Assembly: GCF_000379665.1 (NCBI RefSeq)
Contig: NZ_KB903360.1
Location: 374,175-438,174 of the forward strand
Length of the DNA: 64,000 nucleotides
DNA from: Butyricimonas synergistica DSM 23225
GTDB lineage: Bacteria; Bacteroidota; Bacteroidia; Bacteroidales; Marinifilaceae
Direction: 5' to 3'
The notes beneath the pieces are model-generated. The model saw nothing but the letters and a program-made list of their open reading frames with translations. It did no database searches and was not told the DNA's origin. Positions 1,246 to 2,825 of this stretch are shown in pieces. The first letter of the stretch is position 1. Each line of letters opens with the position of its first letter. Position numbers and translations under genes: made by a program.

Positions 1246-1647
1246 CTATTTTAAAGTATGCCATTCTTCTTTATCGTAAGTAAGAGATAATTCATGTAGA
1301 AAATCACTAAACTCTTCTTTAATTCCCTTTAGGTTTATATCATGAATTTCTAAATCTTCAATATCCTTACATTGAATCATTTGTAGTAATAATTCTTTTA
1401 TCCCCTCAAATTTTTTGACAGGATAATTTTCATTTCCAATTTGGAATTGAAATATTGAATTTGGAGTTGAAAGTTGTTTTAACGAATGTTCTATTACTTG
1501 TTCCTCTTTTTTATAGAACTTTTCAATAGAATTGAGTTTCCATTGTTCTGTTTCTAATAAAGTATTGAATTTTTGTTGGACTTCTTTCAATTTTTCAATT
1601 CCTTTCCAAGAAAATTTGACTTCGAAAATATCCTGTGCTGTTTTCAT
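1246..1647 (-). CDS. Hypothetical protein, 133 aa
   Basis: This is an AT-rich frame of 133 codons with a clear ATG. The protein has no signal peptide or membrane segment. It is rich in Lys and Glu, and residues 15-60 look like one long amphipathic helix (ending near KKEEQVIEHSLKQL). The second half alternates short strands and helices. I do not recognise a family. It lies 87 bp upstream of the BACON lipoprotein in the same orientation, so the two could share a transcript. The structured RNA candidate ends shortly upstream, so this gene probably has its own promoter in the short gap between them. Coding status is supported by length and codon pattern only. Confidence 0.6.
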   Translation of the reverse strand: MKTAQDIFEVKFSWKGIEKLKEVQQKFNTLLETEQWKLNSIEKFYKKEEQVIEHSLKQLSTPNSIFQFQIGNENYPVKKFEGIKELLLQMIQCKDIEDLEIHDINLKGIKEEFSDFLHELSLTYDKEEWHTLK

Positions 1648-1693
1648 ATAGCTAGATATTATTTACCCCAATCCCCAAGGGTAATTTAAATAT

Positions 1694-1982
1694 AAAAAAA
1701 GAAGTGTGGAGATTGCTAGCTTATTAATCTTGAGGTACGACCAAGTAACCTTCGCAGAAATAAACAGCCACCCCACACTAGACCATAATATATTTAGAAA
1801 TTATATATGGCAAGCATGAGCGTTTGTACCGTCTATCCTTCTGCTTTAAAATTGGTCGTTTTCAAGATTAGGATAAAACCAAACACTTCTTATTAAATAT
1901 GTCTGCCCCCCAGATTTCTCCAAAGGACACCACAAATGTAAATAATAATTAGCATTCTACAAACGCTCAACAGGGGTGGCTG
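1694..1982 (-). ncRNA. Candidate structured non-coding RNA, ~290 nt
   Basis: No frame longer than about 20 codons is convincing here, but several helices nest properly on the minus strand. P1 pairs CAGCCACCCC (1982-1973) with GGGGTGGCTG (1774-1765), 10 perfect pairs. P2 pairs GAGCGTTTGTA (1968-1958) with TACAAACGCTC (1828-1818), 11 perfect pairs. A smaller hairpin CCATA/TATGG lies between the 3' arms. The 3' end is AGTGTGG (1779-1773) pairing with CCACACT (1709-1703), followed by CTTTTTTT, an intrinsic terminator. A perfect -7 element TATTTTTG (1995-1988) would start transcription at the 5' base of P1. I could not match it to tmRNA, RNase P RNA or 6S RNA by eye. The function is unknown. Confidence 0.6.
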
Positions 1983-1987
1983 CATGG

Positions 1988-1995
1988 CAAAAATA
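1988..1995 (-). promoter_or_regulatory. -7 element for the structured RNA
   Basis: TATTTTTG on the minus strand matches the Bacteroidota -7 consensus TAnnTTTG exactly. It lies about 6 nt before the first base of helix P1 of the RNA candidate. No convincing -33 TTTG is seen at 19-21 nt, so this is a promoter inferred from one box. Confidence 0.45.
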
Positions 1996-2294: not shown

Positions 2295-2825
2295 TTAGTA
2301 ACCTCCCTCCGAATAACTGGAGTAACTTTCCTCACCGACTATAACATGATCCAGACAATTCATGTTCAACAACCTGCAAGCCTCCATGATGTTTTTTGTT
2401 ACTTTTAAATCCTCCGGACTGAAAGCTAAATTCTGGCTTGGGTGGTTATGAAAGATGATTGAACAGGTGGAGTTAGTTTTTAGCATTAACTGTAAAACAG
2501 TCCTTGGATCAATGATAGTGTTCTCTTGATTACCCACGCTAAGCCTTGCAACACCCAGCACCTTTAAATTTCTATTTAACAACATGATCCATGCCTCTTC
2601 ATGGTGATGCAAACAATCATCGAAAAAGGGTCTGATTAATTTGTATGCCTCCATCGCCATCGTCACTTTGGGTCTGTCTTTTGGCCGTACTTTCAGCTTG
2701 TATCTAATCTCTACCTCCGATAATCTTGTTAAATCATCGAAATGTAGATTCGGTTCTATTCCAGTTTTAATCTCTGGTGATAAGTATTCTTCTTTCATTA
2801 GTGATAAATTTAATTGATAAGACAT
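2295..2825 (-). CDS. RadC-like JAMM/MPN domain protein
   Basis: The 176-aa protein carries the RadC-type JAMM signature FHNHPSQNLAFSPED, with candidate metal ligands His126, His128 and Asp139 and an acidic residue near Glu77. It ends in the typical LDHVIVG...YSS...G motif. It lacks the N-terminal helix-hairpin-helix region of chromosomal RadC (~220 aa), having instead a ~50-residue unique N-terminus. Stand-alone RadC domains are very common on integrative and conjugative elements and plasmids of Bacteroidota. A DNA-repair role is not established for the family, and a metallo-hydrolase or antirestriction-type function is discussed for such proteins. It heads a small operon with the two-TM mini-protein. 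It is the best mobile-element marker in this island. Confidence 0.88.
   Translation of the reverse strand: MSYQLNLSLMKEEYLSPEIKTGIEPNLHFDDLTRLSEVEIRYKLKVRPKDRPKVTMAMEAYKLIRPFFDDCLHHHEEAWIMLLNRNLKVLGVARLSVGNQENTIIDPRTVLQLMLKTNSTCSIIFHNHPSQNLAFSPEDLKVTKNIMEACRLLNMNCLDHVIVGEESYSSYSEGGY

What the first reader, a model, noticed from the sequence alone, without database searches (positions are those of the whole stretch)
1694..1995. Undescribed structured RNA with its own promoter and terminator in a mobile-type island
Between two small genes the minus strand has two perfect nested helices (10 and 11 bp) 180-200 nt apart, a third hairpin, a perfect -7 box placed so that transcription starts at the first paired base, and a helix plus T7 terminator at the end. 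The helices are long enough to be unlikely by chance in AT-rich DNA. I see no tmRNA, RNase P or 6S hallmarks. No reverse transcriptase, IscB or TnpB gene is in the window to claim it as a guide RNA or retron.
Basis: partly seen in the sequence, partly recalled or inferred. Interest (0 to 1): 0.72.

Follow-up and report, generated by a model that had tools for sequence, protein, structure and literature searches.

The report
Unlisted Bacteroidota RNA switch before genes
The stretch encodes a real, large folded RNA that starts the messages of many unrelated, mostly surface-protein genes across the Bacteroidota phylum and appears built to flip between a "stop" and a "continue" shape; it is missing from the RNA family database, and what it senses is unknown.

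Summary
The structured RNA is real and has no Rfam match, but it is not a free-standing RNA of a mobile island. It is one of about 15 copies in this Butyricimonas-type genome, and belongs to a family found across the Bacteroidota: 29/59 genomes of its family (38 copies in Odoribacter lunatus), 131/393 of its order, 93/395 of its class. Homologues show overwhelming covariation in P4, P5 and the kissing loop P3.

The RNA sits directly upstream of a start codon, usually 50-60 nt after the T-run. The downstream genes are unrelated, and in Odoribacteraceae 29/37 look exported (background 46/185). The strand GCGUGGG...GUUUAU pairs either upstream (long rod, P10-P11) or downstream (a hairpin of about -30 kcal/mol, P7-P12, ending in a T-run in 82% of copies, against 4% background). 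In the Odoribacteraceae copies a further covarying pseudoknot (P8/Pd) spans from the terminator to the start codon.

Best reading: a cis-acting 5' leader, a transcription attenuator of riboswitch-like design, with unknown signal. Termination, readthrough and ligand are inferred, not shown. Decisive tests: in vitro transcription, Term-seq, reporters.

The parts
1988..1995 (-). upstream -7 box TATTTTTG (promoter 1), typical of Butyricimonas copies
1973..1982 (-). P1 5' strand CAGCCACCCC
   Evidence: covaries with 1774-1765
1958..1965 (-). CGTTTGTA, TTTG about 19 nt before box 2 (probable -33 element)
   Evidence: sequence
1933..1940 (-). -7 box TACATTTG (promoter 2, shared across the family)
   Evidence: TAnnTTTG upstream of the core in 76/90 copies vs 8.75 expected
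1900..1930 (-). 5' hairpin Pb
1879..1890 (-). S1 strand AGAAGTGTTTGG (pairs with S2 = P2*, or S4 = P0)
   Evidence: covariation
1864..1870 (-). P4 5' strand
   Evidence: 93-97% paired, many two-sided changes
1848..1863 (-). hairpin whose loop is P3 5' strand (CGACCAA, 1858-1852), kissing loop
1839..1844 (-). P5 5' strand
1829..1836 (-). P10 5' strand
1813..1827 (-). S2 strand ACAAACGCTCATGCT (pairs with S1; its 3' part with S3 = P11)
1782..1811 (-). P6 hairpin (long form only)
1771..1779 (-). S3 strand AGTGTGGGG: P11 3' strand or terminator P7 5' strand
   Evidence: P7 97.9% and P11 96.8% paired, both covary
1765..1774 (-). P1 3' strand GGGGTGGCTG (overlaps S3)
1760..1767 (-). P10 3' strand / P12 5' strand (terminator extension)
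1754..1759 (-). P5 3' strand
1734..1750 (-). hairpin Pc whose loop is P3 3' strand (TTGGTCG, 1744-1738)
1725..1731 (-). P4 3' strand
1702..1711 (-). S4 strand CTCCACACTT: terminator P7 3' strand
1690..1703 (-). T-run after P7
   Evidence: 82% of 89 copies have >=7 T in 10 nt vs 4% background
1708..1714 (-). P8 5' strand AATCTCC
1663..1684 (-). hairpin Pd with P8 3' strand GGGGATT (1676-1670) in its loop: pseudoknot before the start codon
   Evidence: covaries in the 31 Odoribacteraceae-type copies
1246..1647 (-). downstream gene, 133 aa, no Pfam match
2295..2825 (-). upstream RadC/JAB gene (context, probably of a mobile element)

Best explanation
A cis-acting 5' leader RNA that controls the gene behind it by conditional transcription termination (a large attenuator of riboswitch-like design). 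Transcription starts at a Bacteroidota-type promoter just upstream. The strand S3-P10b (GCGUGGG...GUUUAU) can pair with upstream RNA to give a long rod (P4, kissing loop P3, P5, P10, P11), or with downstream RNA to give a hairpin (P7-P12-Pc) that ends exactly at a T-run. The first state should let RNA polymerase continue into the gene, the second should stop it. In the Odoribacteraceae copies a pseudoknot (P8/Pd) between the T-run and the start codon may add translational control. Shown here by sequence: the two alternative folds, their covariation, the promoter, the T-run, and the preferred spacing to start codons. Inferred: that termination and readthrough occur, which state is induced, and that a ligand or protein decides.
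For: Covariation on a structure-blind alignment of 31 copies: 90.7% of cells paired, 213 two-sided cells vs 65.6 shuffled, score 0.462 vs 0.207 (0/500), slid controls <= 0.119. In 90 phylum-wide copies P4 97%, P3 100%, P5 97% paired (shuffled 49, 65, 49%). P11 39 two-sided cells vs 5.0 shuffled; helices not in the model also covary: P7 18 vs 1.6, P2* 41 vs 13, P0 25 vs 6, P12 37 vs 15; in L026 all four strands changed in concert. The S3..S4 segment folds as a closed hairpin in 87/89 copies, mean -29.7 kcal/mol, followed by a T-run. Leader position: 61/69 next genes on the same strand versus 37/73 upstream neighbours; ATG distances pile up at 50-61 nt, and 52-59 nt in five of six further own-genome copies (12 nt in the sixth). 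In L112, L113 and L158 the ATG is only about 19-27 nt after the core, which leaves no room for another promoter. A covarying pseudoknot lies between terminator and start codon. Cargo in Odoribacteraceae is enriched for signal peptides, 29/37 vs 46/185, p = 1e-9.
Against: No transcript, termination or ligand data. The rod is on average 9.8 kcal/mol more stable than the P7 state in nested-only energies, so the direction of the switch is open. In part of the copies (for example the f124 genomes) the next gene starts 200-570 nt downstream, which would also suit an independent RNA. A coherent metabolic theme among the genes, usual for riboswitches, is missing.
Confidence: 0.68

Rival explanations
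1. A free-standing, trans-acting non-coding RNA (sRNA-like) with its own promoter and terminator; the downstream genes are merely neighbours or occasional readthrough.
For: Own promoter box and an intrinsic-terminator-like 3' end in most copies; in some lineages the next gene starts 200 nt or more away.
Against: Preferred ATG spacing in front of unrelated genes, 61/69 on the same strand, 19-27 nt in some copies; covarying structure continues past the terminator towards the start codon; tens of copies in one genome.
Confidence: 0.17
2. A 5' UTR that controls translation or mRNA stability rather than termination; P7 is part of a compact knotted fold, not a terminator.
For: Pseudoknot P8/Pd directly before the start codon in Odoribacteraceae; Bacteroidota do not rely on Shine-Dalgarno initiation (general knowledge); rod more stable than P7.
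Against: T-run placed exactly after P7 across the phylum; P8/Pd is not obvious in the short forms.
Confidence: 0.12
3. Guide or template RNA of a mobile system (omega RNA, bridge RNA, retron, diversity-generating element).
For: Many dispersed copies; several copies lie beside genes of integrative elements (RadC, DUF3871).
Against: No protein gene is constantly next to it; neighbours differ on both sides; the start-codon spacing is unexplained.
Confidence: 0.03

Closest known systems
Transcription attenuators / riboswitch expression platforms (e.g. trp-type attenuation, T-box, terminator riboswitches)
   Same: 5' leader, mutually exclusive terminator and antiterminator helices sharing one strand, T-run after the terminator
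   Different: no conserved leader peptide, no known aptamer, larger fold with a kissing loop, and very mixed, mostly exported cargo
c-di-GMP riboswitches (functional analogy from general knowledge)
   Same: many copies per genome in front of varied surface and exported proteins
   Different: no sequence or structural match (Rfam scan negative); ligand unknown
Bacteroidetes RNA motifs in Rfam (6S-flavo RF01685, Bacteroid-trp RF01692, Bacteroidales-1 RF01693, Bacteroides-1 RF01694, Flavo-1 RF01705, Pedo-repair RF01715; listed in PMC2864571)
   Same: same phylum, structured RNAs found by comparison
   Different: none of them matches here at gathering threshold or, for the short forms, at E <= 1; two motifs of that paper without an Rfam entry (Bacteroides-2, GUCCY-hairpin) could not be tested
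EAR (epsC) and put-type processive antitermination RNAs (general knowledge)
   Same: structured leaders before genes for surface products
   Different: this RNA carries its own terminator and alternative folds; no Rfam match to epsC

Membership tests
transcription attenuator leader | lies in the 5' UTR of the regulated gene | tested here: met
   same strand 61/69, ATG spacing peak at 50-61 nt, no room for a promoter in some copies
transcription attenuator leader | intrinsic terminator (GC stem + T-run) | tested here: met
   87/89 isolated S3..S4 segments fold as a hairpin; 82% T-rich tails vs 4%
transcription attenuator leader | alternative antiterminator sharing a strand with the terminator | tested here: met
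   P7 and P11 share S3; both covary
transcription attenuator leader | regulated termination/readthrough in cells or in vitro | not testable with these tools
   no expression data
leader-peptide attenuator (trp type) | conserved short ORF in the leader | tested here: not met
   the frame from the AUG in CATGCTTGCC differs in length and sequence between copies (read by eye)
riboswitch | binds a ligand directly | not testable with these tools
   no binding data can be produced here
any Rfam family (incl. tmRNA, 6S, RNase P, Flavo-1, Bacteroidales-1) | score above the curated threshold | tested here: not met
omega/bridge/retron RNA | adjacent nuclease, recombinase or reverse transcriptase in homologues | tested here: not met
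   neighbouring ORFs of about 70 copies share no such gene by inspection; no RT/TnpB family search was run
protein-coding gene | conserved reading frame | tested here: not met
   indels out of frame throughout the alignment and compensatory base pairs

The most novel reading that the evidence does not exclude
A phylum-wide, previously unlisted riboswitch-like class in Bacteroidota that reads a common intracellular signal (for example a second messenger) and sets expression of a large, variable surface proteome from many leaders per genome.
Probability: 0.28. Interest if true: 0.92.

Novelty: new variant of a known kind. Interest (0 to 1): 0.78.

Why it matters
Bacteroidota dominate the human gut, yet few of their regulatory RNAs are understood. 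A large, strongly covarying leader absent from Rfam, present in a quarter to a third of sampled genomes of the class and order and in up to 38 copies per genome, points to an unknown signal and regulon for surface proteins, and can be tested directly by transcription and ligand assays.

Tried and rejected
Rfam as explanation: no match at any useful threshold. Protein coding: rejected by compensatory changes and indels. tRNA/tmRNA: none here. Invertible promoter (P1/P2 as inverted repeats): rejected, all aligned copies have one orientation and inner helices covary. P9 (TTTATCC/GGATAAA) fits Odoribacteraceae but not the phylum, 73% vs 72% shuffled. A P7 count used shifted columns and is void; replace it. 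Two structure-pair runs failed on string length (67, 68). A control search outside the phylum could not be started. Viral contigs: 5 pattern hits without blastn similarity to the family. The one phage-collection hit (MT837835, unverified faecal contig) looks like bacterial sequence. Paper searches found no description; only open-licence papers are held.

Full report
CHECK OF THE OBSERVATION. The minus strand of 1694-1995 holds the reported elements: a -7 box TATTTTTG at 1995-1988, P1 (1982-1973 with 1774-1765, 10 bp), an 11-bp match (1968-1958 with TACAAACGCTC), a third hairpin (1930-1900) and a GC stem plus T-run (1711-1690). The 311-nt RNA folds at -87.5 kcal/mol, z = -3.8 against dinucleotide shuffles. 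No Rfam family matches, and ARAGORN finds only a tRNA elsewhere in the window.

HOMOLOGUES. blastn finds 7 copies in the window's own genome and copies in 10 of 40 relatives. A pattern scan of named genomes hits Butyricimonas, Odoribacter and Sanguibacteroides, all Odoribacteraceae, plus one Chloroflexi record that does not align with the family by blastn and is taken as chance. Contig lengths tie G005 to Butyricimonas sp. Marseille-P3923 and G017 to Odoribacter lunatus, so the window genome (same genus as G005) is taken to be a Butyricimonas. A covariance model (R1) finds 29/59 genomes of the family, with 38 matches in G017, 131/393 of the order and 27/395 of the phylum sample. A broader model (R2) finds 93/395 of the class (61/197 genera), 25/120 of one distant family, and 15 copies in the own genome. 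The window has one copy. Distant copies are shorter (about 150-160 nt) because hairpin P6 is missing, yet keep the rest. They match no Rfam family even at E <= 1.

COVARIATION. On a MAFFT alignment made without structure (A1, 31 copies), 45 pairs of P1, P4, P3, P5/P10, P11 and P8 are 90.7% paired. Two-sided changes number 213 cells against 65.6 in shuffles, the covariation score is 0.462 against 0.207 +- 0.009 (0/500), and sliding partners by 1-3 columns drops it to 0.119 or less. P4 pairs occur as UA, AU, CG and GC in large numbers. P3 joins the loops of two hairpins (GAAAA-loop-AAUUUU and GGUG-loop-UACC), i.e. a kissing interaction. In 90 phylum-wide copies P4, P3 and P5 are 97, 100 and 97% paired against 49, 65 and 49% after shuffling. 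That alignment was fitted to a model holding P4, P3, P5, P10, P11 and P6, so those figures lean upward; P0, P2*, P7 and P12 were not in the model. Shuffles do not correct for relatedness; no phylogenetic null was run.

TWO EXCLUSIVE FOLDS. Strand S3 (AGUGUGGGG here, GCGUGGG elsewhere) pairs upstream with ...CAUGC (P11, 96.8% paired, 39 two-sided cells vs 5.0 shuffled) or downstream with S4 CCCACGC (P7, 97.9%, 18 vs 1.6). In copy L026 the strands S1-S4 read GCA, AUG, GCAUG and CAUGC instead of GCG, ACG, GCGUG and CACGC: all four changed together. The isolated S3..S4 segment folds into a closed hairpin (P7, P12, Pc) in 87 of 89 copies, mean -29.7 kcal/mol; P12 covaries (37 vs 15). Directly after S4, 82% of copies have at least 7 T in 10 nt against 4% of background windows. 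This is the anatomy of an intrinsic terminator facing an antiterminator rod. By nested energies the rod is 9.8 kcal/mol better on average, so which state is the default is open.

A LEADER, NOT A FREE RNA. In Odoribacteraceae the start codon of a different gene follows most copies at nearly constant distance, and a covarying hairpin with a loop pseudoknot (Pd/P8) fills the space between T-run and start codon (window 1714-1708 with 1676-1670, hairpin 1684-1663, ATG at 1647). Across the phylum the next gene is on the same strand in 61/69 cases (upstream neighbours 37/73) and ATG distances cluster at 50-61 nt. Five of six further own-genome copies give 52-59 nt, the sixth 12 nt. In some copies the ATG is only about 19-27 nt from the end of the core, too close for a separate promoter. 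A TAnnTTTG box lies within 120 nt upstream of the core in 76/90 copies, 8.75 expected.

CARGO. In Odoribacteraceae 29/37 distinct first genes have a signal-peptide-like start and 20/37 a lipobox, against 46/185 and 11/185 of other local ORFs (p = 1e-9 and 4e-11; a simple heuristic, not SignalP). Families include LRR, WG repeats and a weak zinc-ribbon match below its curated cut-off, and by eye BACON-like, SUMF1-like and TonB-C-like domains. In the f124 genomes the RNA sits between a divergent HTH-type gene (one tested, a weak HTH_19 match below its curated cut-off) and a TonB-dependent receptor with plug domain. The window's own downstream gene (133 aa) has no Pfam match; a relative follows the split G002 copy.

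THE UPSTREAM MODULE. P1 is present only in copies with the extra 5' segment (mostly Butyricimonas). Its 3' strand overlaps S3, so a transcript from box 1 could hold the terminator open.

KNOWN OR NEW. It works like a terminator-type attenuator or riboswitch expression platform and meets those structural features; ligand binding is untested, so it is not filed as a riboswitch. It matches none of the Bacteroidetes motifs in Rfam that PMC2864571 lists. PMC9723704 reports further structured 5' elements in Flavobacterium without Rfam hits, which may or may not overlap with this family. The literature check covers only open-licence papers, so prior description elsewhere cannot be excluded.

Noticed in passing
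L077 about 3186916-3186990 and L078 about 3260880-3260913 (genome G002): A roughly 74-kb element with tyrosine-recombinase-like genes near one end is inserted inside this RNA, within the P3 3' loop; the ends read TTGGCGATAACCTACAC and GTGTAGGTTATTGGCGATACC, i.e. terminal inverted repeats with a repeated TTGGCGATA.
   Followed up: partly
L004 1269-1435 and 1625-1809; own genome C1:725385/725009 and C15:89148/89504; G068:C8:72873/72504; G018:C9:51108/51490: Tandem pairs of the RNA about 180-190 nt apart in front of one gene, as seen for tandem riboswitches.
   Followed up: no
L124, L125, L126, L137, L149, L166, L170, L173: Recurrent cassette: divergent HTH-type gene, short-form RNA, then a TonB-dependent receptor of one family (motif NAGYY...ERTG.I); sigma-factor-like genes follow the RNA in L162 and L178.
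   Followed up: partly
L031/L058/L070 start and L068 end (Odoribacter lunatus contigs): Several contigs break inside the RNA, suggesting near-identical copies within one genome (recent duplication or gene conversion).
   Followed up: no
L036, L048, L052, L053, L054: A recurring block of a DUF3871 gene and small genes directly upstream of the RNA while the downstream gene differs each time: looks like a cargo slot of an integrative element.
   Followed up: partly
window 1162 down to the window start, minus strand: Second gene downstream encodes a BACON-like repeat lipoprotein (MRKLIFIFILLSTLLANCGKDSG...), running off the window edge; read by eye, not searched.
   Followed up: no
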